From contig NC_009616.1 of assembly GCF_000016905.1 (NCBI RefSeq), positions 1,736,001-1,800,000 of the forward strand: DNA of 64,000 nt. The letters run 5' to 3'. Shown here piece after piece: positions 20,398 to 32,420 of this stretch. The translations under genes were made by a program, and so were the position numbers. The DNA comes from Thermosipho melanesiensis BI429. GTDB lineage: Bacteria > Thermotogota > Thermotogae > Thermotogales > Fervidobacteriaceae. How positions within the stretch are numbered: position 1 is the first letter of the stretch; the number at the start of each line of letters is the position of its first letter. The notes below the pieces were generated by a model. The model had not been told where the DNA came from, searched no databases, and saw only the letters and a list, made by a program, of their open reading frames with translations.

Positions 20398-20833
20398 TTT
20401 AAAAGAATCTTTTTCCCATGCAATAGAGGGTATTGTAATTGCTATATCCCAAGAAAAAAATTTAAGAATTCATTTTTTTGTAGGATTTATAGTACTATTT
20501 ATTTCTTTGTTTTTACCAATAGATAAGAATAACTATATTTGGATCTTTTTTGCGGTATTTTTTGTTATTATTTCTGAACTAATAAATACATTAATTGAAA
20601 ATTTGTTGGACTTATTCATTCCAGAATATCATCCTATAGTAAAAATTATAAAAGATATAAGTTCCGGTATAGTTCTTTGGGCTGCGATGTTTTCTGTGGT
20701 TGTAGGTATTGCAATAATAGGTAATTTATTATTTAGTTGGAATATAATAATTGCTAAAGTTGTAGGTTTTCTATTTGTGACACTATTTCCATTTATTTAT
20801 ATGCTGGGAGTGATAAAATGGAAGAAAAAATAA
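20321..20833 (+). CDS. DgkA-type lipid kinase (diacylglycerol/undecaprenol kinase family)
   Basis: 170 residues. After a ~30-residue polar N-terminus comes the DgkA core: SFSHAIEGIVIAISQEKNLRIHF, membrane helices, the catalytic motif SELINTLIENLLDLF (E..N..IE..D) and the last core helix around SSGIVLWAAMFSVVVGIAI. One extra C-terminal helix follows, making it longer than the usual ~120-130. Gram-positive-type members phosphorylate undecaprenol or diacylglycerol. The ATG has GAGGCGGTG upstream within korC; no later start has a good site, so the long overlap seems real. Confidence 0.85.
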   Translation: MVPHSQKSSTSHELKEKPSEQLGSSNLKESFSHAIEGIVIAISQEKNLRIHFFVGFIVLFISLFLPIDKNNYIWIFFAVFFVIISELINTLIENLLDLFIPEYHPIVKIIKDISSGIVLWAAMFSVVVGIAIIGNLLFSWNIIIAKVVGFLFVTLFPFIYMLGVIKWKKK

Positions 20834-21852
20834 AGGTATTAATCGTTGACGATTCTGCTTTTATGAGAATGATTTTAAAAGATGTCATAGAAAAAGAAAA
20901 TGACATGAAAGTTGTTGGTATTGCTAAAGATGGCCTTGAAGCTGTTGAGCTTGCAATAAAAACTAAACCTGACGTTATTACGCTAGATGTTGAAATGCCA
21001 AAATTAAATGGAATTGAAGCATTAAAGGAAATTATGAAACGTGCACCTGCAAGAGTAATAATGGTAAGTAGCCTTACTGAAGAAGGCGCAGATATTACAA
21101 TTACTGCACTTGAGCTTGGTGCTGTTGATTTTATTACCAAACCAGCCGGCAGTATCTCTATGAATTTTAGAAAAGTTGCTGGAGATTTGATTAAAAAAAT
21201 AAGAAATTCTATGCAAATTGATATTAATGCTCTAGTAAGAAAAGCTCTATATAAGCCAAAAACACTGAACGTCAAATCACTTGTTTCTGGAAAGGTTGTT
21301 GTAATTGGCTCATCGACTGGTGGACCGAAATCTCTTGATCAAGTTATTCCTCCACTTCCTGCTAACTTTCCAGCTCCAATTATATTAGTTCAACATATGC
21401 CAGCGGGTTTTACAAAATCATTGGCAAATAGACTAAATAAAATATCAAACTTAAATGTTAAAGAAGCAGAAGAGGGAGATATTTTAAAACCAGGATGGGT
21501 ATATATAGCTCCTGGGGACTATCATCTTGGAATTAAATTGCACGATAAAAAAAGTATTGTTTACCTAGAAAAAAGCGAAAAGATAAATAATGTTAGACCA
21601 GCAGTTGATTTTACTTTGGATAAAGTTGCTGAAATTTACAAGGATAAAACCGTTTCAGTTATCTTAACCGGTATGGGGAAAGATGGAACCAAAGGAGCAT
21701 TCAAAGTAAAATATTATAAAGGTATTGTAATTGCCGAATCAAAAGAAACTTGTGTAGTTTACGGTATGCCTAAATCTGTTATTGAAGAAGGTTATGCCGA
21801 TTTTGTGTTACCTGCATACAAAATACCTGAAAAACTTGTTGAAATAATCTAG
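20818..21852 (+). CDS. cheB: Chemotaxis protein-glutamate methylesterase CheB
   Basis: 344 residues. A receiver domain (1-120) has the acidic pair in LIVDDSAFMR and phospho-site Asp in DVITLDVEMPKLNG. The C-terminal esterase domain carries Ser in VVIGSSTGGPKSL (~163), His in LVQHMPAGFT (~190) and Asp in LTGMGKDGTKGA (~286). CheB removes methyl groups from, or deamidates, chemoreceptors, so it would act on receptors such as those at 28394 and 63741. It is not in a che operon here; it overlaps the lipid kinase by 16 bases. Confidence 0.96.
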   Translation: MEEKIKVLIVDDSAFMRMILKDVIEKENDMKVVGIAKDGLEAVELAIKTKPDVITLDVEMPKLNGIEALKEIMKRAPARVIMVSSLTEEGADITITALELGAVDFITKPAGSISMNFRKVAGDLIKKIRNSMQIDINALVRKALYKPKTLNVKSLVSGKVVVIGSSTGGPKSLDQVIPPLPANFPAPIILVQHMPAGFTKSLANRLNKISNLNVKEAEEGDILKPGWVYIAPGDYHLGIKLHDKKSIVYLEKSEKINNVRPAVDFTLDKVAEIYKDKTVSVILTGMGKDGTKGAFKVKYYKGIVIAESKETCVVYGMPKSVIEEGYADFVLPAYKIPEKLVEII

Positions 21853-21866
21853 GGAGGTGTAAATGT

Positions 21867-22952
21867 ATGAAAAAACTTTTTATTACATTTCTTTTGATGT
21901 TTACTGTCGTATTTTTTGGCGCTTTTAGAGATGTACCTGTAAATCATTGGGCATATGATGCAGTTAACGAATTAAGTAAACTCGGAATTGTTAGTGGTAT
22001 GCCTGATGGAACTTTCCAAGGAAACCAAGCAATGACTAGATATCAAGTAGCAGTAGCACTTTATAGGATAATGAACTACCTTCAACAGCAAATTGATAAA
22101 GCTGTCTCAAACACAACTGATGTTAGTAAACTCCGTGAACAAATCTTAACACTTTCTGATATTGTTAGTACAGCAATGAATAAAGTTGAAGATTTGGCTA
22201 ACTTAAAAAATGACTTACAAGTTATGTCATCTGAACTAAGTGAATTAAAAACTTCACTAGTGAACACAAAAAATGATGTTAAAAGTCTGTCAATTGATAT
22301 CTCTTCGTTGAAAAATGAACTTGAAACCTTAAAAAGCAAGATTGAAGTACTTGAAAATAAATCCAGCAATGAAAATATAGCCAATTTAATTTCACAAAAA
22401 GCAGATAAAAGTGATCTTGATAAACTTGTTTCTAAATATACCAACTTTGAAAAACAATTAAACAAAAGAATAGATACAATGAACACTGAAATCGAAAATG
22501 TAAAGTTAAATATTAATGACACAAAAGATTCTATTGATTCATTAAACAACAAATATGCAAGTCTTGAAGAATATCTTACAGCTAAAACCAAGGCATTAGA
22601 TACTAGGCTTTCAACATTTTCTGGCGATATTACACAATTAAAAGTTGATTTTCAAACATTTAAATCTGATTATGATGTAACAATTAAATCTATAACAACA
22701 AAGCTTGAAGAACTTAATAAAGTAATTGGAAATTATGAAAGTATCACAAAAAACATTGATAATTTAAAAAATGATTATTCTACAATAAAATCTGAAACTG
22801 AAAATAAAATAAACGAAATAAATCATGAACTTGAAACATTAAAGTCTGAAAATAAAACCACTTCAAATACTTCTACGTTTGCGTTAATATTTTCAATTAT
22901 TTCCTCTGCAATTGCAGGAGTTGCAATTTATTTAGTAATGACCAAACAATAA
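21867..22952 (+). CDS. SLH and coiled-coil outer envelope protein of the Omp-alpha type
   Basis: 361 residues: a signal peptide (1-18), one S-layer homology domain (~19-75: FRDVPVNHWAYDAVNEL, GIVSGMPDGTF, MTRYQVAVAL), a long heptad-rich coiled coil (~85-330) and a hydrophobic C-terminal helix (ALIFSIISSAIAGVAIYLVM). This is the architecture of Thermotoga Omp-alpha, a rod that spans the wide periplasm and ties the outer 'toga' to the cell body. Omp-alpha genes are often followed by the porin-like OmpB; here a terminator follows instead. Confidence 0.88.
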   Translation: MKKLFITFLLMFTVVFFGAFRDVPVNHWAYDAVNELSKLGIVSGMPDGTFQGNQAMTRYQVAVALYRIMNYLQQQIDKAVSNTTDVSKLREQILTLSDIVSTAMNKVEDLANLKNDLQVMSSELSELKTSLVNTKNDVKSLSIDISSLKNELETLKSKIEVLENKSSNENIANLISQKADKSDLDKLVSKYTNFEKQLNKRIDTMNTEIENVKLNINDTKDSIDSLNNKYASLEEYLTAKTKALDTRLSTFSGDITQLKVDFQTFKSDYDVTIKSITTKLEELNKVIGNYESITKNIDNLKNDYSTIKSETENKINEINHELETLKSENKTTSNTSTFALIFSIISSAIAGVAIYLVMTKQ

Positions 22953-23006: not shown

Positions 23007-23229
23007 ATGTTTAATACCTCTAATATTATTCAAATAATTTATTAAATATAACCTTCTAAACACCAATTACAAACCTTAATGGAAACTACCACATCTTACG
23101 ATCTGCCATGAAGATGTTTTTTTACTTCAACCTGTTAATGGGGCGTAAAACTCTTTTCGGATTTCCACCGTAAGAGCACAGTCAACTGGCATAATTTCAC
23201 ACGGTCCTCGCCCTACTCAGTAGCTATCT

Positions 23230-23758
23230 CTATGCATAACTTATTAGATTTATAGTAGCATTGATATCTCTATCATGGCCTGTTCCACATTGCAGACATG
23301 TTCATTTTCTCATGCCTAGCTTTTTTACTTTTTTTATTTATATACCCACAGATCGAACACGTTTGGCTTGATGCAAATTTATTAGCTCTATAAAAGCGTT
23401 TTTTACAACGTTTTTTTAAGCATACCTTATATGTTCAAATTTTCTACCGCAATATTACTAACTTAGTTTTCGTTGACTAGTTTGCTGTTTATTTTATGTA
23501 TCAATCGTTTTTTATATTATTGATTTTCTCTATATATTTTGCTAACCTTAGTCTTTCTTTTTCTCTGTTTTTAGAACCTTTTTGTTTTTTTGAAAATTTT
23601 CTATACAACCTTTTAAATCGCATTTCGTATTTCGTCAAATCGGCAATTGAATATTTCTCACCTGTGCTTAATATACTGTATGTCTTATCTCCTTGACAAT
23701 GCTGCTTTTTAAGTCTAATGAATTTGCTGAGTTTTGATTTTGACTGTACTAAAAACAT
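23230..23758 (-). pseudogene. TnpB (IS605 OrfB) remnant
   Basis: Pieces of TnpB in shifting frames. 23501-23758 keeps an 85-codon open stretch with KFSKKQKGSKNREKERLRLA, the typical middle region. Further down come IHKINSKLVNEN, IAVENLNI (the RuvC Glu region), SSQTCSICGYINKKSKK (first zinc-finger Cys pair), then in another frame TCLQCGTGHDRDINATINL, with the second Cys pair and the last RuvC Asp. Several stop codons and frame changes separate these, so it cannot make an active RNA-guided nuclease. The first RuvC Asp region is lost. Confidence 0.85.
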
Positions 23759-23868
23759 TACATATGTATGGTATTTTTCACCAAAATTACTTTTCTACGA
23801 TATTTTGTAACTAACACCAAATGGTAATTTAATTTAAATTCTGAATGATTATTTGATTCTAAAATCAT
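23758..23868 (-). pseudogene. TnpA (Y1 transposase) remnant
   Basis: From ATG 23868 a 36-codon frame reads NNHSEFKLNYHLVLVTKYRR near its start, the conserved N-terminus of IS200/IS605 TnpA. It then runs into a TAA at 23758 next to the TnpB fragment. The HUH and catalytic Tyr motifs are missing, so it is a deletion remnant. Confidence 0.8.
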
Positions 23869-23947
23869 GGAATTAACTTCGTTAGCTAATTAACGCTTAT
23901 CTCATATCACTTTATCCATGTTCAAATCATCTAATATAACTTTTTTA

Positions 23948-25725
23948 TTACATTTCAACAATTTGTTTATTAAGAAGTTTCCTATATTTTTCACATCTTT
24001 TAATAAGTTCATCATGTGAACCCGAATCTAAAATACAACCATTCTCTATAAAATACACTTTCTCTGCCTTTTTTATTGTTGATAACCTGTGAGAAATAAT
24101 AACTACTGTGTTAATTTCATTTATTATTCTTTCAAGTACTTTCTCTTCTGTTTCACTATCTATTCCCGACGTCGCTTCATCTAAAATTAATACTTGGGTT
24201 TCCTTATTAATGCCATTGCAAGAATAATTCTTTGTCTCTGACCATCCGAAAGTTTTGCTCCTCTTTCTCCTACTACACTATCTATTCCTCCTTCCATTTT
24301 TTCAACAAAATCACATTCACACATTTTAAGAATTCTTTTTACTTCCTCCTCGGGAAAATCTTCAAAAAGTGTAACATTATTTTTAATAGAAGTATCAAAC
24401 AAAATATCATTAGATTTAACAAGAATAATATTTTTTCTTAGCGAGGGAAGTAAAAATTGCTCAATGGGAATATCGTTAATAAGAATTTTACCACTTGTTG
24501 GGCTAAGAAAGTTATTAAAAAGATAAACCAAAGTACTTTTTCTTACACCTAATCCACCTACTATCGCTACTTTTTCACCTGAATTTATTTCAATATTCAC
24601 ATTAGTAAGTACCACTGTTTTATCATACTCAAATCCCACATGTCTGGCTTCCAATTTTTTAAAATTTTTCAGTTTTATTCCACTTGATTGTTCAAAGGGA
24701 TACGAAAAAACTTTGGTAAAATTTTCCCAATTTGGTATGGATGAAAAAAACATGTTTAAACCTGTAAGTCCCATTCTAACTATATCGTATATCCAGTTCA
24801 TGTATGCTTCGAAAGCAACAAGCGTTCCAACACTAATTTTACCTTTCCAGAGAAGATAGACACCAAACCCAAGAACAAAAGTGCTTCCAAACCATTTATT
24901 TATTTCAATATTCTGATTTGATAATTCAGTCACAGTTCTAAATTTAATATTATCTTTACTCCATTTTTTTGCACTTGTATCAAGATAATTTTCAATAAGT
25001 TTTGAATTAGGATACTGCTTCAATATAGATATTCCTTCAACAATTTCTTTGTATCTTTTCAAAAACACATTGTAACTTTCTCTATCATTTTTAGAAGTTT
25101 TAATAACAAATTTTTTTAGGGTAGAAGTTGATAGGTAGAATAACAAAACACTTATAAAAACGATAATTGTCAACTTTACATTCAAAATTAAAAGTAATAA
25201 AAGTACAACAAAGAAAAAAACAATATTAAAATAAAATTGTAACCTTCCGGCATAAATTTCTGAAGTTGCTTTGGGAATATCTCTCACAAAAATCGAAAAG
25301 TATTCACCTGTATTTTGAGGATTTAACATACTTAGAGGAAGGGAAATTATTTTTGCATAAACACTTTTTGATTCCTTAACACGAGAATTATTCAACAAGT
25401 TTTTTGAAGCTAAATAGTTAAGTTTATACATAATAAAAGTTTGAAATAACAAAGTGATAAGATAAAGACTTGAAAAAATCGCAATTTCTCTCATGCTACT
25501 TTTGTAAAAAGCACTATCTATAGTTTTTTTAATAAATATTGGTGTAAGAATATTTGTGGTTAAAAATAAACTTTCTAGAAAAAAGAAATATGAATAGTGC
25601 TTTCTGTATTTTCTTTCAAACTTCTTGATAACATATCCCAAATGATCGTTTAATGAAAATAACTTCATATTTTTTACCCACAAAAGAATTATTTCATATT
25701 TAACTTTTAAAGTATCAATGTTCAA
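23948..25725 (-). pseudogene. Peptide-type ABC exporter (membrane plus ATPase), inactivated
   Basis: A fused exporter half-transporter of about 590 residues: six-helix membrane domain (~45-330) and ATPase domain (~365-590). It has two lesions. The Walker A reads GGLGVRKST, with Arg (codon 24541-24543) where the Gly of GxGKST belongs. Near 24193-24198 a one-base loss shifts the frame: the first frame stops at 24187 after LAMALIRKPKY, while the next frame continues QVLILDEATSGIDSETEE, the H-loop VVIISHRLST and a normal end at 23948. The signature LSDGQRQR is intact. It starts by TTGA overlap with the maturase, or at ATG 25668. No peptidase domain is present. Confidence 0.85.
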
Positions 25726-26855
25726 GGATCAAATTCTAAAATTTTTTCCAATATTTTCTTTTCAATATGACACTCTTTAAACATATCATTTTGGTAATTA
25801 TTTTTAAAAATGCATTTATTACAGAAAAACAAGAAATAGCATTCCTTACAATTATTGTATTTAGCTTTTGTAAATGTCTTCAAAGTTTTATTTCTCCAAA
25901 TTTTTATATTTCTTAATATATTTTCTTCATTATCTTTAACAACATTTGATATTTTATATTCTGATTTTTCTAAAACTAGTTGGCATGGATAAATATTACC
26001 AAAAATATCGACAATAAATGAATTTGAACCAGCTGAACAAAATGTACTAACAATTATCTTTCTCAAAGAATCTGCAGGATTAAGATAACTTATAAGTAAT
26101 TTATGAAGCAAAACATCATGAAAGTTATCTAAAGTTTCTTTACTGCTTTTTTCCAATAAAAAAATTATTAATTTATAGTACTCTTGCACTATTGAAGCAT
26201 CATATTTTAGCTCTTGCACTAAAGAACCATTCCAATCATAAACCGGTGAAATAATCACATCTGTAGTATTAAATTCATAATAGAAATATTCGTATAGTTT
26301 CAAAAGATCATAACCAAGTTTTTTATGTAACTTTGTGTATGTTACTTCAAATGAAATAGGAAGACCTATCTTTTTTAGTAAATTAATGTTATTTTTCACA
26401 TGTTCAAAACTCTTTAATTTGCTATCAATGCTAGGTCACGTATAGTCATGTATTTCTTTAAACCCATCAACATTAACAACTATATCAATTATCAACTTAT
26501 CAACATATGCTTTGCAAATTTCAATAAAATGATTGAGTTTTTTTCTGGAACAAACAAGCTTGTAGCTATAGTTATCCGTTGTTTTTTTATTGAATTTTAA
26601 TGCTAAAATTCTAAATATTTCATCAATTATATCTACATTTAAAAGGGGGGCTCCTCCAAATATATGTATGTTGTGAATTTTATATTTTGAAAGAAAAAAG
26701 TTAAGAGCTTGTCTTAATACCTTTTTGTTCATAAGCCCAGGAGTACCATACGTACCACTATTTGCATAACAATATTTACATCTTAATTTACAAACTTGAG
26801 ATACATTTAACGCCAATCTCAAAATTTCATTATCTTTTACCAAGCTCCTCTTCAA
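25722..26855 (-). pseudogene. Radical SAM/SPASM peptide maturase interrupted by an in-frame stop
   Basis: The upstream part (26436-26855) has the radical SAM cluster motif CKLRCKYC (Cys 22, 26, 29) and HIFGGAPLL. The downstream part (25722-26399) has the SPASM Cys set: CSAGSNSFIVDIFGNIYPCQ, CKECYFLFFCNKC and a late CHIEK. Both lie in one frame, separated only by TGA at 26436-26438 in EIHDYT-stop-PSIDSK, where Arg (CGA) would be expected. Restored length would be ~377 residues, normal for enzymes that put thioether or other crosslinks into ribosomal peptides. The start is uncertain: TTG 26855, or ATT 26870 just after AGGAGG. Confidence 0.88.
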
Positions 26856-27218
26856 AGAAATATTTTTAATTAGCCTCCTGAAATTTGCTTTTTCTTAATT
26901 TTTTGAAAATATTACTCTTCTCCTTTTATCTTTAAAAAGAGTTAATTAGTTACTTTCTTTTTTCATCTGTTTTTTCACCTATCTTTAGTTAACCTTTATA
27001 TTAAATCCCATACCTCTTATTCATTATTTGAATTTCTTATTCATTATTTGAATTTCCTTTTATTATCTACCATTTTCTTCTCAAACTAACCCTCTTATGT
27101 CCATCAGGATCGTTTACCGTCCTAACATTCCTTCGTCCTATTTGAGGTATGGTGAGTTTGCTTGTTCTCGTATCCTGGATTTTCTCCTAATGGAGGAAAA
27201 CTGCATTCTCACCTATAC
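26856..27218. other. Gene-free stretch between the maturase and IS110 remnants, with a 20-bp tandem repeat
   Basis: No convincing gene is seen. On the minus strand AGGAGG (26879 to 26874) precedes the maturase, and a second site-like AAAGGAGAAGAG (26926 to 26915) leads only into a few codons before TAA. Two exact copies of a 20-base unit beginning CTTATTCATT lie at 27016-27035 and 27036-27055. From ~27085 to 27218 the sequence is less AT-rich and has hairpin potential; it is probably the IS110 3' end. Confidence 0.6.
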
Positions 27219-28281
27219 TTATACTTTTTCTGGTTCATACTTTATCTTACTTTTTGCTAGTTTAAATACTATCCTTATCATTTTCAACCTTATTGCTATT
27301 AACGCTTGTACTGCTTTTAATGGATTCTTCTCTCTTTTCCTCGGTTTTTCATATTTTTCTCTCATTTCACGATTATGTTTTAATGTTGCTTGTGCCATCA
27401 GATATATTATTTTTCTGAGCAATGGTCTTCCTCTTTTTGTTATTCGTGTTTTACCCTTATGTTCCCCTGAGCTTACTTCATACAGATTTAATCCAGCTAA
27501 TTTTCTTATTTCTTTCCAGCTTTTAAATCTGTTTATATCTCCTATCTCTCCTAATATTATTGCTGTCATTATTGGTCCAATCCCAGGTACGCTCTTTATA
27601 TATTCCCCTTCTTCCGTTTCTTCCACCAATTCCTCCATTTCTTTTTCTAACTCTTCTATTTGACTTGTTAAAAACTCTATTTCTTCTAATAACATTCTCA
27701 ATTTGATTTTTGCACTTTTTTGACCTTCTCTTACTCCTATTGATTTTTTCGCTGATTCATATATCTTCTGTGCCCTACTTTTCCTATCTCTATGTAGATT
27801 CTTTCAAAATTCTTTCTATTTCTTCTATCTCAACTCTATTATTTCTTTTGAAATGGGTGGGTTTTTAATAACTTTATTGACCCTTCTGAGAATATGTTTT
27901 TGTATATCTTTTTATACTCTGGAAAGTATTCATCCATTACTGACATCCCCATATATTTCGCATTTTTTCTTTTATTCACTAACTGTTCTCTTGTTGTGGT
28001 TATTACTCTCAACTCTCCATATATGTCTTCTGGCAAATATATGTCAAAATATCTTCCATCCCTTATTAATCTAGCTATTACGCCTGCATCCTTACTTCCA
28101 CTATTTATTTTTTCTTCCAGATTTTTTACCCAATCTATGGCATTATTAAATGCTTAATCAAATCAACTTCACGAAAGTCCATCATTCTGATACAATAAGT
28201 TCTTTTTGCTACATCAATACCTACAGTCAAGGTATCTTGAGTAATTCTTGAAACTTTTTTGTTAATGGAATTCAGTTTCAT
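27219..28281 (-). pseudogene. IS110-family transposase remnant
   Basis: A frameshifted IS110 transposase. The N-terminus from ATG 28281 reads TLTVGIDVAKRTYCI, with the first Asp of the DEDD catalytic set, then breaks down. 27839-28036 keeps a middle piece (MSVMDEYFPEYKKIYKNIF). 27219-27701 keeps the C-terminal Transposase_20 domain: VPGIGPIMTAIILGEIGDI, AGLNLYEVSSGEHKG, KRGRPLLRKIIYLMAQA. The three pieces are in different frames with stops between. Its base usage is less AT-rich than neighbouring genes. Confidence 0.87.
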
Positions 28282-28393: not shown

Positions 28394-30388
28394 TTACAAT
28401 TTAAACTTAGCCAAATATTCGTTCAATGAAGAGACAGCATCATTTAAGTCATCCGAATATGTTTTTACCTCTGCAGCCTGTTTTGCTTGTTTTTCCACTT
28501 GTCCTGCCATTTGTTTTACTTCTTCTTCTACTTCCATCAATGTCTTTGTTACCCTATCTATCGCTGCGCTTACCTCTTCTGATGCTCCACTCTGTTCTTC
28601 CGATGTCGCTGCTAAGTCATTTGTCATTCCGTATATATCTTCTATCCTTTCTAGTAACTCTCTTATTGCTTCACTTACTTTCTCTGATGACCCTACGGAT
28701 TCTTCTATCTTTTCTCCCACTTCTTCTGTGTATTTTGCTACGTTTACCGCTTGATTCTTTATCGCATTTAATACTTCTGCTATCTTTTGTGTCTGGCTCT
28801 TACTTTCTTCTGCTAATTTCCTTATCTCATCTGCTACTACCGCAAATCCCCTTCCTGCTTCTCCGGCCCTTGCCGCTTCTATCGCTGCATTTAGTGCTAG
28901 TAAGTTTGTTTGTTCCGCTATACTTGATATCGTTTCTACTATTTCTTCTATCTTTGTCGATGATTCTTCCATCTCCCTTACTGATTTTTCCGTCTCTTTC
29001 ATCTTTTCGTCTACTTCCATTATTACTCCCTTCAACTCTTTTACCCTTCCCGTTGAATCTGTCGCTTTTTCTCTCATCTCTTCCGCTTTCCTTGCTAGGT
29101 TTTCTGAGTAATTTGCTATGTTTTGCGCCCCTGATGCTATCTCTTCCATTCCACTGTTTGCTTCTTCTGTGGCTGATACTACTTCTTGTATCTCATATGT
29201 CGCTTTGTTTACCGTTTCTTCTGCGTCTTTCGCCGCTTTTTCCGCTTCTTCCACCATGTCATCTAATAACTGTGAAACGGAGTATACTTGTGAGTTTAGT
29301 TTCATTACTTCTCCTACTGTTTGTTTGAAGTTATCTACCAATATCTTAAACGCATTTGTTAGTTGGCTTATCTCATCTTTGCCTTCTTTTTCTTCTATCT
29401 CTACTGTTAGGTCTTTTTCCGCTACTCTCTTGGCTATTTCACTTATCTCTATTATTGGTCTACTTATTGATTTTGATACAAAGTATGCTATTATTCCCGC
29501 TACTATTGCTACTATTACCCCCGTTAATATCCCTAAGTTTACTATCTTTTTCGCCTCTTTTATCACTTCATCATAATTTATTGTTGCCATTACTTTTAAT
29601 GGTAAGTCGTCTATTTTTACAAAACTTGCAAATTTTTTCATTCCATTGTATTTGAATATTACCGTCCCTTTGTCTTTTGATAGCGCAGAGTTTAATGTTT
29701 CAAGTTCTTTTTCTTTTGCTACGTCTAATTTGTTTACCTTTGTTTTATCTGGATGGGCTATCACTATGGTATCATATAGTATGCTTATTATCCCATTCTC
29801 TCCTATCTTTGCATTCTCTACCGAATCTTGTAATACTGCTTGTGGATATAACCCAATAAGTACTGCTGTTACATTCTCACTGAAATCCTTTACCGGCACT
29901 ACTACCGCTATTGTGCTTGTACCTTCATAGATATATGGTATGTATATGTCATATTCTTTTTCTTTATCGAATATTTGATGAACCAATACGTCAAGTTTGT
30001 CTGGAAATTCAATACTTAATTCACCGGTTTCATCAAATATTTGACCATTTTCTAAAACAAGATAAGTCCAAAGAAAGCCATCCTTTTTCAAAGCATTACG
30101 AGCATTACGAATACCCCAAGCAAGTTGTTTTTTTCCAAGTTCACTAGTTGCATTCATAAGGTATGGAGCAAGAGAACCCCCCGTTGCATATTTGTAAATG
30201 GACTCAATAATATTGCTAAGAATAGCTTGTATGTCTTTTGATATGGAAGTAAGAACAAGTTCGTTAATAGTGCTTGCCATTTGTGAAAAATGACCAAATG
30301 AAAGATACAATGAAACAGATATACTCGCAACCGTTGCTATTACCGCTACTATTACAAGAATTAATATCAATTTTATCTGTAACTTCAT
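28394..30388 (-). CDS. Methyl-accepting chemotaxis protein
   Basis: 664 residues: membrane helix (5-27), an extracytoplasmic Cache-like sensor (~35-275, with [17 protein letters not shown]), second helix (~280-300), HAMP (~300-355) and the cytoplasmic signalling rod with the conserved tip [20 protein letters not shown] (~500) followed by [18 protein letters not shown]. It reports ligand binding to CheA/CheW. It overlaps the hutH stop as ATGA, so the two are translationally coupled. The signalling half is noticeably richer in G+C than its neighbours. Confidence 0.96.
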
Positions 30389-31866
30389 CTCTCCACCTCC
30401 AAGATAATTTTTTCTTTAACATTATTAAAATCATCTCCAAAGTATCTATCTCCATTCATTTGGATCTCTATCTTCTCAAAAAATTTTTCAACTTTTTCCG
30501 ATGACTTTAGAGGTCTTCTTAATTCCAATGCAACTTTAACCAACATTGCCTCTATTGATATTAAATTAATAAGGTTTGAATAGATTTTTTTTAATTTTCT
30601 TGCAGCTGTTGCACCCATACTTACATGATCCTCCTGATATGCTGATGTTGGAATAGTATCAGAAGTTGCAGGATGAGATAAAACCTTATTTTCATTACAA
30701 ATTGCTGCCGCTGTATATTGCCAAATCATGTATCCAGAATTCAATCCTTCTTTACCAGTTGCAAGAAACGGTGCAAGACCTCTATTAACCATAGGATTTA
30801 CCAATCTATCAATTCGTCTTTCAATCATATTTCCCATATCTGTCAAGGCAATTGAAAGATAATCACAAACAAGAGCAACAGGTTCACCATGAAAATTTCC
30901 GCCACTTATTACTTCTCCATCAAAGATTAAAGGATTATCTGTTGCAGCATTTATTTCATTTTCAACTACGCTTTTTGCAAATTCAAGGATATCATATACT
31001 GCACCATAAACTTGTGGAATTGTTCTAAGGGTGTATGCATCCTGTACATTTCCACAATCAATATGAGACTCTCTTAATTCACTATTTGATAAATAATCTC
31101 TCAACAACTTTGCAATGTAAATTTGTCCTTTGTGATTTCTTGCTAATTGTATTCTTTCATCATAAGCTTTTGGAGTTCCAAGCAACACATCAACAGCTCC
31201 AGCTGCCACTAAAGTTGCAACTTCAATTAATTTGAACATATCTCTTACTAACAGTGACAAAATCGATGTCATAAATTGTGTTCCATTTAGTAAACTCAAT
31301 CCTTCTTTTTCTCTTAATACCAAAGGTTTAATACCTTTTGAATCTAAAAACTGCTTAGTTTTAATCTTTTTATTTCCAGACATTATATAACCTTCACCAA
31401 TTAATGCCATAGCAATATGTGAAAGTGGTGCCAAATCCCCGCTTGCACCAACACTACCCATTTCTGGCACAAATGGTACAACATCTTTATTCAAAAATTC
31501 AATTAATTTTTCAATAACCAACGGTCTAACACCTGAAAAACCCTTTGCTAAAGAATTAGCCCTCAAAAGCATCATAGCCCTTATAACATCAGGTTCTAGT
31601 GACTTACCAATTCCTGCTGCATGAGATAATACTATGTTCCTCTGAAGAGCAGCTAACTCTTCTTTTGAAATTCTTACATTTACCAACGCACCAAATCCAG
31701 TATTTACACCATAAACTGGTTTTTCATCTTTTAAAATTTTTTCAATGTTTTCTCTTGATTTTTCAATCCTTAATTTTGCTTCTGGATCAAGAGTTACATC
31801 TTCTTTATTTCTTGCAACATTATGAACATCATCGATTGTTAAAGTGTTTCCATCTATCTTTACCAA
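30385..31866 (-). CDS. hutH: Histidine ammonia-lyase
   Basis: 493 residues. The TTG at 31866 lies 5-6 bases after GGGGGGAG and is preferred to an upstream in-frame ATG with no site. The Ala-Ser-Gly of [20 protein letters not shown] self-cyclises to the MIO electrophile; [17 protein letters not shown]-type [10 protein letters not shown] and the QDHVSMG-like [15 protein letters not shown] are also present. It converts histidine to urocanate. No hutU, hutI or hutG is in the window; its neighbours are an adenosyltransferase upstream and a chemoreceptor downstream. Confidence 0.95.
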
Positions 31867-31898
31867 AACTACTCCCCCCTTAAAAATTTGATTATTTA

Positions 31899-32420
31899 TC
31901 ATAACTCTGAAACTTTAATTTTATTAATCTCATCTTTTTCCAAATATCTTGCAATTACATAAAAGAGATCAGAAACTCTGTTTATATACGCCAAAATTTC
32001 CTTTCTAATCTTTTCATTTTTTGATAGCCTAACTATATTTCTTTCAGCTCTTCTTGCAATAGTTCTACAAACATCCATGTATGCACTTTCTTTTTTCATT
32101 CCCGGAATTACAAAAGTATTTAAATTCAAATCTTTCTCGAAATCTTCGACATACTTTGTTACTCTTTCAACATCCTCATTGTCAATTAACTTTACAAACT
32201 TTTCCCCTTTTGCTAATTCTGTAGCCATTCTAAACAAATCTTTTTGTATTTCTTCAATAATATCTCTTATCTTTCCAGATAAATACGCTCTTGCAATCCC
32301 TAAATTTGAAACTAACTCATCAATAGTCCCATACGCTTCAACTCTTAAGTTATCTTTATCTACCCTTTCACCATTTGCAAGTGAAGTAAAACCTAAATCC
32401 CCTTTTTTTGTACTTATCAT
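31899..32420 (-). CDS. ATP:cob(I)alamin adenosyltransferase, PduO type
   Basis: 173 residues beginning MISTKKGDLGFTSLANGERV, with the ATP-binding TKxGDxGxT motif, then AYGTIDELVSNLGIARAYL and the conserved helix CRTIARRAERNIVRLS near 118-133 and INRVSDLFYVIARY near the end. It adds the adenosyl group to reduced cobalamin to make coenzyme B12. GGAGGGAT precedes the ATG. It is adjacent to hutH, though that enzyme does not need B12. Confidence 0.95.
   Translation of the reverse strand: MISTKKGDLGFTSLANGERVDKDNLRVEAYGTIDELVSNLGIARAYLSGKIRDIIEEIQKDLFRMATELAKGEKFVKLIDNEDVERVTKYVEDFEKDLNLNTFVIPGMKKESAYMDVCRTIARRAERNIVRLSKNEKIRKEILAYINRVSDLFYVIARYLEKDEINKIKVSEL

What the first reader, a model, noticed from the sequence alone, without database searches (positions are those of the whole stretch)
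23060..28281. A dead RiPP biosynthesis island trapped between two decayed insertion elements
A radical SAM/SPASM maturase and a peptide-type ABC exporter lie side by side, both inactivated, with IS200/IS605 remnants on one side and an IS110 remnant on the other. The surrounding genes on both sides are intact housekeeping operons. The simplest reading is a transferred peptide-modification locus that has lost its precursor gene and is eroding. Radical SAM-SPASM plus exporter pairs are known for sactipeptides and ranthipeptides; in hyperthermophile relatives such loci may still be active and undescribed.
Basis: partly seen in the sequence, partly recalled or inferred. Interest (0 to 1): 0.7.

Follow-up and report, generated by a model that had tools for sequence, protein, structure and literature searches.

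The report
Dead TM1316-type peptide-modification gene island
In this heat-loving Thermosipho genome a small inserted island holds the broken remains of a pair of genes that, in Thermotoga relatives, modify and export a tiny cysteine-bearing peptide; the peptide gene itself is gone, so this is a fossil copy of an already described type of locus.

Summary
At 23.08-28.3 kb lie a broken radical SAM/SPASM gene and a broken exporter gene, between an eroded IS200/IS605 tnpB and an eroded IS110. The damage exceeds what was noted. The maturase lacks its first ~61 residues, has a short out-of-frame stretch, two in-frame TGA codons, and lesions in the invariant GGEP and S-x-DGP motifs. The exporter has a frameshift and a Walker A Gly-to-Arg change.

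Both proteins are ~64% identical to the maturase and first exporter of a Thermotoga operon: 31-aa precursor, hairpin, maturase, two ABC exporters. That is the TM1316 locus, published in 2013 and modelled as NCBIfam NF033413. The precursor is absent from this whole genome and no second-exporter homologue remains at the locus.

Three congeneric genomes show no island at this site (directly in one, at contig ends in two), so it is most likely an insertion. Transfer, loss and decay are therefore supported; "undescribed in relatives" is not.

In passing I found 27-35-aa, three-Cys precursor candidates beside more distant homologues, unmatched in NCBIfam, and similar locus decay in several other Thermotogota. 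The window locus is a dead member of a known kind; low interest, with a modest lead on the wider family.

The parts
21867..22952 (+). Left flank: intact S-layer-homology-type/coiled-coil protein, next to CheB (20818-21852); both conserved in order in three congeners
23083..23868 (-). IS200/IS605-type tnpB remnant; 72-74% identical to another, also degraded, copy at 210058-210949 of the same genome
23945..25725 (-). Broken peptide-type ABC exporter (TM1318-like, 64-65% identity); frameshift at about 24193-24205
24541..24543 (-). Walker A lesion: invariant Gly before Lys is Arg (VRKST)
25713..26876 (-). Broken radical SAM/SPASM maturase (TM1317-like, 64% identity, residues 62-454 of 463)
25722..25724 (-). 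TGA at the position of a Trp codon of the homologue, shortens the C terminus
26436..26438 (-). In-frame TGA at an Arg that is invariant in relatives (R213 of the reference)
26534..26573 (-). Short out-of-frame stretch: two mutually compensating indels (another frame reads ITIATSLFVPE, as in the homologue ITVATSLFVSE)
26649..26651 (-). GGEP to GGAP lesion in the SAM-binding motif
26877..27141 (.). Unassigned stretch where the maturase N terminus, precursor and promoter would be expected; no detectable homology; holds a 20-bp tandem repeat
27142..28281 (-). IS110-family transposase remnant in three frames, internal loss of about 190 bp relative to an intact 1425-bp relative; element end may reach about 28340
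28394..30388 (-). Right flank: intact methyl-accepting chemotaxis protein, followed by hutH (30385-31902); same order in congeners

Best explanation
The island is a pseudogenised copy of the TM1316-type RiPP operon. In the intact Thermotoga version a 31-aa three-Cys precursor (kept abundant, I infer, by a strong hairpin that separates it from the downstream genes) is bound by an N-terminal recognition region of the radical SAM/SPASM enzyme, which installs Cys thioether cross-links; a pair of ABC half-exporters then moves the product out. In this genome the operon entered a convergent intergenic site between an SLH-type protein gene and an MCP gene. The precursor, the maturase start and the second exporter were lost, insertion elements occupy both ends, and the remaining maturase and exporter have accumulated stops, frameshifts and active-site losses. 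It makes nothing now. Shown: homology, lesions, absence of the precursor, site without the island in congeners, architecture of the intact loci. Inferred: cross-link chemistry, export role, order of events, acquisition by transfer.
For: Maturase 64% and exporter 64-65% identical to adjacent genes of the Thermotoga locus, in the same order and strand. Precursor NF033413 hit in Thermotoga, 84.5 bits against a cut-off of 35; no precursor match in G000 and no Cys-cluster ORF in the island outside the rSAM Fe-S motifs apart from a chance CCLC. Multiple independent lesions. Site without the island: in G002 the MCP 3' end and SLH gene end lie about 250 bp apart; G003 reaches the MCP 3' end about 550 bp past the SLH gene and G001 ends about 250 bp past it, with no island. 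Hairpins after 9 of 10 precursors, z -2.7 to -7.4. CteB (PDB 5wgg), an RRE-bearing peptide maturase, aligns over nearly the whole length of the intact family (PMC6231123).
Against: Transfer is not proven: loss in three congeners is possible, and the ABC tree does not place the window copy firmly with any donor. The stretch 26877-27141 is long enough to have held the maturase N terminus but shows no homology, so how the 5' end was lost is unclear. In all three congeners the flanks lie on separate contigs broken at or inside the MCP gene; only G002 and the very end of G003 carry both neighbours on one contig.
Confidence: 0.9

Rival explanations
1. Ancestral locus of the family Fervidobacteriaceae, inherited vertically and lost or moved in the congeners, rather than acquired in this lineage.
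For: Identity of 64% is also what vertical orthologues across these genera could show; a related genome of the same family (G017) keeps an exporter pair and a maturase remnant; the window ABC does not group with a clear donor.
Against: Three of three congeners lack the island at a site whose flanking genes are otherwise conserved, and the phylum-wide distribution is patchy: 17 of 103 genomes have any match at 1e-20, and besides the window only five (three Thermotoga, G022, G017) have a close copy or remnant of the maturase.
Confidence: 0.2
2. The truncated exporter or split maturase still works in some other role (for example exporter as self-protection, or two-part maturase).
For: In G017 both exporters are intact while only a maturase remnant is left, so exporter-only retention occurs elsewhere.
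Against: In the window the exporter has both a frameshift and a Walker A Gly-to-Arg change, its partner is missing at the locus, and the maturase lacks its N terminus and GGEP Glu.
Confidence: 0.04
3. Sequencing or assembly error: the genes are intact in the organism.
For: Single-base differences account for some of the lesions.
Against: Many independent lesions of different kinds, including a missing N terminus, missing precursor and second exporter, and eroded IS elements on both sides; the genome is a closed single contig of 1,915,238 bp, the size given for T. melanesiensis BI429 (454/Sanger) in PMC6211235.
Confidence: 0.02

Closest known systems
TM1316 locus of Thermotoga maritima (NCBIfam NF033413 RiPP_TM1316)
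   Same: Maturase and first exporter are 64% identical, adjacent and in the same order and strand
   Different: In the window's genome no precursor, no second exporter at the locus, no TPR-type neighbour protein, and both remaining genes are broken
SCIFF maturase CteB (PDB 5wgg) and PapB ranthipeptide maturases (NF047865, TIGR03974)
   Same: N-terminal recognition region, radical SAM core and SPASM domain; CteB aligns over nearly the whole family profile
   Different: Scores far below the curated cut-offs; the precursors are 27-35 aa with three Cys, unlike the six-Cys SCIFF peptides
Subtilosin A locus (sboA-albA and exporters) of Bacillus subtilis
   Same: Small precursor, rSAM/SPASM maturase and ABC exporter logic
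   Different: AlbA model scores only 21 bits against a cut-off of 850 on the window C-terminal piece; different precursor

Membership tests
TM1316-type RiPP locus | Precursor of NF033413 in the genome | tested here: not met
   No match in the window's genome; the model matches G031 and G022 peptides
TM1316-type RiPP locus | TM1317-like rSAM/SPASM maturase | tested here: met
   64% identity, residues 62-454, but pseudogene
TM1316-type RiPP locus | TM1318-like exporter directly downstream of the maturase | tested here: met
   64-65% identity over full length, frameshifted
TM1316-type RiPP locus | Second exporter TM1319 | tested here: not met
   Only cross-hits to the first exporter at the locus
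TM1316-type RiPP locus | Open reading frames intact | tested here: not met
Ranthipeptide (PapB, NF047865) | Maturase above curated cut-off | tested here: not met
   Intact homologue 135 bits against 340
Ranthipeptide or sactipeptide | Thioether from Cys to beta/gamma or alpha carbon | not testable with these tools
   Needs mass spectrometry or NMR of the product
SCIFF maturase (TIGR03974) | Above cut-off and six-Cys SCIFF precursor | tested here: not met
   120 bits against 425; precursors have three Cys
IS110 | DEDD and Transposase_20 domains in one intact ORF | tested here: not met
   Both detected in separate pieces, the DEDD one below cut-off: remnant
IS200/IS605 (tnpB) | Intact TnpB ORF | tested here: not met
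   85-aa piece plus out-of-frame pieces: remnant

The most novel reading that the evidence does not exclude
Thermotogota carry a wider, largely unnamed family of very small (27-35 aa) three-Cys RiPPs with the architecture precursor, hairpin, TM1317-like rSAM/SPASM maturase, ABC exporter(s), in at least three or four precursor subtypes. The loci turn over fast: several genomes hold dead or partial copies, one (G017) with the exporters intact and the maturase dead, as expected if the product is hostile and the exporter protects non-producers.
Probability: 0.4. Interest if true: 0.45.

Novelty: new member of a known kind. Interest (0 to 1): 0.25.

Why it matters
As a fossil the window locus adds little by itself. 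It shows that the TM1316-type locus reached Thermosipho and died there, and following it exposes a set of tiny three-Cys precursor candidates from thermophiles that no NCBIfam model matched here, which can be tested in E. coli with their maturases for cross-link chemistry.

Tried and rejected
Searched for a diverged precursor: TM1316 against the island, the whole genome, and any three-Cys cluster in six frames of the island; nothing. Searched for the missing maturase N terminus at 26877-27141: no homology. Composite-transposon idea rejected: the two IS remnants belong to different families, and the IS110 has no other substantial copy in this genome. The exporter tree does not name a donor. Base composition: island 23-32% GC, flanks 28-39%; not decisive. 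Structure prediction was not used: the stated rule for that tool does not list loci fetched by the genome search, and the window's own fragments would not answer the question. The Frock 2013 paper itself is not held; its content beyond the title is from memory and is not relied on.

Full report
What was claimed and what is there. The window is G000:C1:1736001-1800000 of a 1,915,238-bp single-contig genome; that length is the one listed for Thermosipho melanesiensis BI429 (NC_009616) in PMC6211235. Between 23.08 and 28.3 kb, minus strand, lie a radical SAM/SPASM gene and a peptide-type ABC exporter gene, both broken, with a tnpB remnant on one side and an IS110 remnant on the other.

Lesions. 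The maturase matches the intact Thermotoga protein from residue 62 to 454 of 463 at 64%. It has a TGA at Arg213, an Arg that is invariant in relatives, a TGA at the homologue's Trp near the C terminus, a short stretch read out of frame between two compensating indels, and substitutions at the GGEP Glu and the S-x-DGP Ser and Pro; among 45 columns invariant in five relatives it departs at four, all in or next to functional motifs. As a yardstick, intact relatives also depart at some columns invariant in the rest (1 to 24), so it is which positions are lost, not their number, that tells. By alignment with CteB (5wgg) the missing N terminus covers most of the region that in CteB is the leader-binding RRE (PMC6231123; the mapping is inference). 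The exporter has a frameshift near 24200 and Walker A Gly to Arg. One stop codon could be an error; this set could not reasonably be.

What it was. The best intact relatives are in three Thermotoga genomes: G029, G031 and G033 (genus names by inference; G031 has 1,860,725 bp, which I recall as T. maritima MSB8). There the order is a 31-aa precursor MQKMPKPVVPNDYLNPGKGCGGAGLVCGWCG, a hairpin, the 463-aa maturase, and two ABC half-exporters. The precursor hits NCBIfam NF033413 'RiPP_TM1316'. The locus was reported by Frock et al. 2013 (AEM 79:6637), seen here in the reference lists of PMC13157175 and PMC11594946; the paper is not held.

What is missing. No precursor anywhere in the window's genome, no second exporter at the locus, no TPR-type neighbour protein. 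The tnpB remnant (23083-23868) begins about 75 bp beyond the exporter's end, where the second exporter should follow; the IS110 remnant (27142 to at least 28281) lies upstream, beyond 265 bp of unassignable sequence.

Was it inserted? In three congeners the left flank (cheB, SLH-type gene) and right flank (MCP, hutH) are conserved. In G002 one contig carries the MCP 3' end and the SLH gene with about 250 bp between; in G003 the contig reaches the MCP 3' end about 550 bp after the SLH gene, and in G001 the contig ends about 250 bp after it; none holds the island. Caveat: the contigs break at or inside the MCP gene. Insertion in this lineage is the simplest reading; ancestral presence with losses is not excluded. 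The exporter tree gives no firm donor.

Relatives. A phylum search (103 genomes) found maturase relatives in 17 at 1e-20. Distant ones have, upstream, small three-Cys ORFs with clear ribosome-binding sites: MKKVLIPVETDVTTSSGCRGYAICGSCKDGKLTP (G069), MKKVVISSKNFDKVLNAGCTGYFLCGSCKEGKLTP (G003), MKRVVISSKTPMVLTEAGCTGYVFCGSCKEGKLTP (G040), MIKLNTTSRDVPACGCLIGSCGNQPAPK (G096), MIKLNSMSKYVLACGCFIGSCGNQPAT (G098), MMKLNTSSRVVPACGCGIGSCGNKPKT (G060; its rSAM lies about 800 bp farther downstream), MIELKSKESRTPSGGCGGKGCGNCGAVMR (G099). No NCBIfam RiPP precursor model matched them. A strong hairpin follows nine of the ten precursors folded, including T. maritima's and a G051 candidate; the exception is the decayed G022 locus (the shuffles there keep single-base, not dinucleotide, content).

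Decay elsewhere. G022 keeps an 84% precursor but has a maturase with five stops in the aligned frame and broken exporters; G017 keeps both exporters but only a maturase remnant; G030's exporter is split by about 1.3 kb and no close maturase was found; G031's first exporter is split in this assembly; G003's divergent maturase is frameshifted at a poly-A run, which could be an assembly error. This is a pattern from few genomes; the protection idea is conjecture.

Verdict. A dead member of a known locus type. Interest 0.25. The wider three-Cys family is the part worth a follow-up.

Noticed in passing
L063:2935-3039 (reverse), L061 and L062 (reverse strands), L064:519-602, L065:942-1031, L028 (reverse), L030:7176-7283: Unnamed 27-35-aa three-Cys precursor candidates upstream of TM1317-like maturases in several Thermotogota; they matched no NCBIfam precursor model
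   Followed up: partly
L023:1447-1521 and equivalents in other loci: Strong hairpin between precursor and maturase in 9 of 10 loci folded, probably an attenuator that keeps the precursor in excess
   Followed up: partly
L024:7687-11554 (G017): Both exporters intact beside a dead maturase remnant and no precursor: possible exporter-only (self-protection) retention
   Followed up: partly
L027:7664-10842 (G022): Precursor 84% conserved while maturase and exporters are broken
   Followed up: partly
L030:8557-8600 (G003): Maturase frameshift at a run of seven A in a Thermosipho relative; real decay, assembly error or slippage not distinguished
   Followed up: no
L023:8934-12273 (G031): A second RiPP-type cluster with several Cys-rich peptides with MEFLN-type leaders and two rSAM/SPASM maturases, close to the TM1316 locus
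   Followed up: no
L023:6873-8483, and L021, L022, L024-L027, L032: A protein of about 536 aa, weakly TPR-like, recurs beside these clusters, often more than once; function unknown, possibly a regulator
   Followed up: partly
L026:10159-11468 (G030): Exporter gene split by about 1.3 kb of other sequence
   Followed up: no
L094, L095, L096, L097, L098, L099: Draft genomes of three congeners all break at or inside the same MCP gene, which hinders synteny checks there
   Followed up: yes
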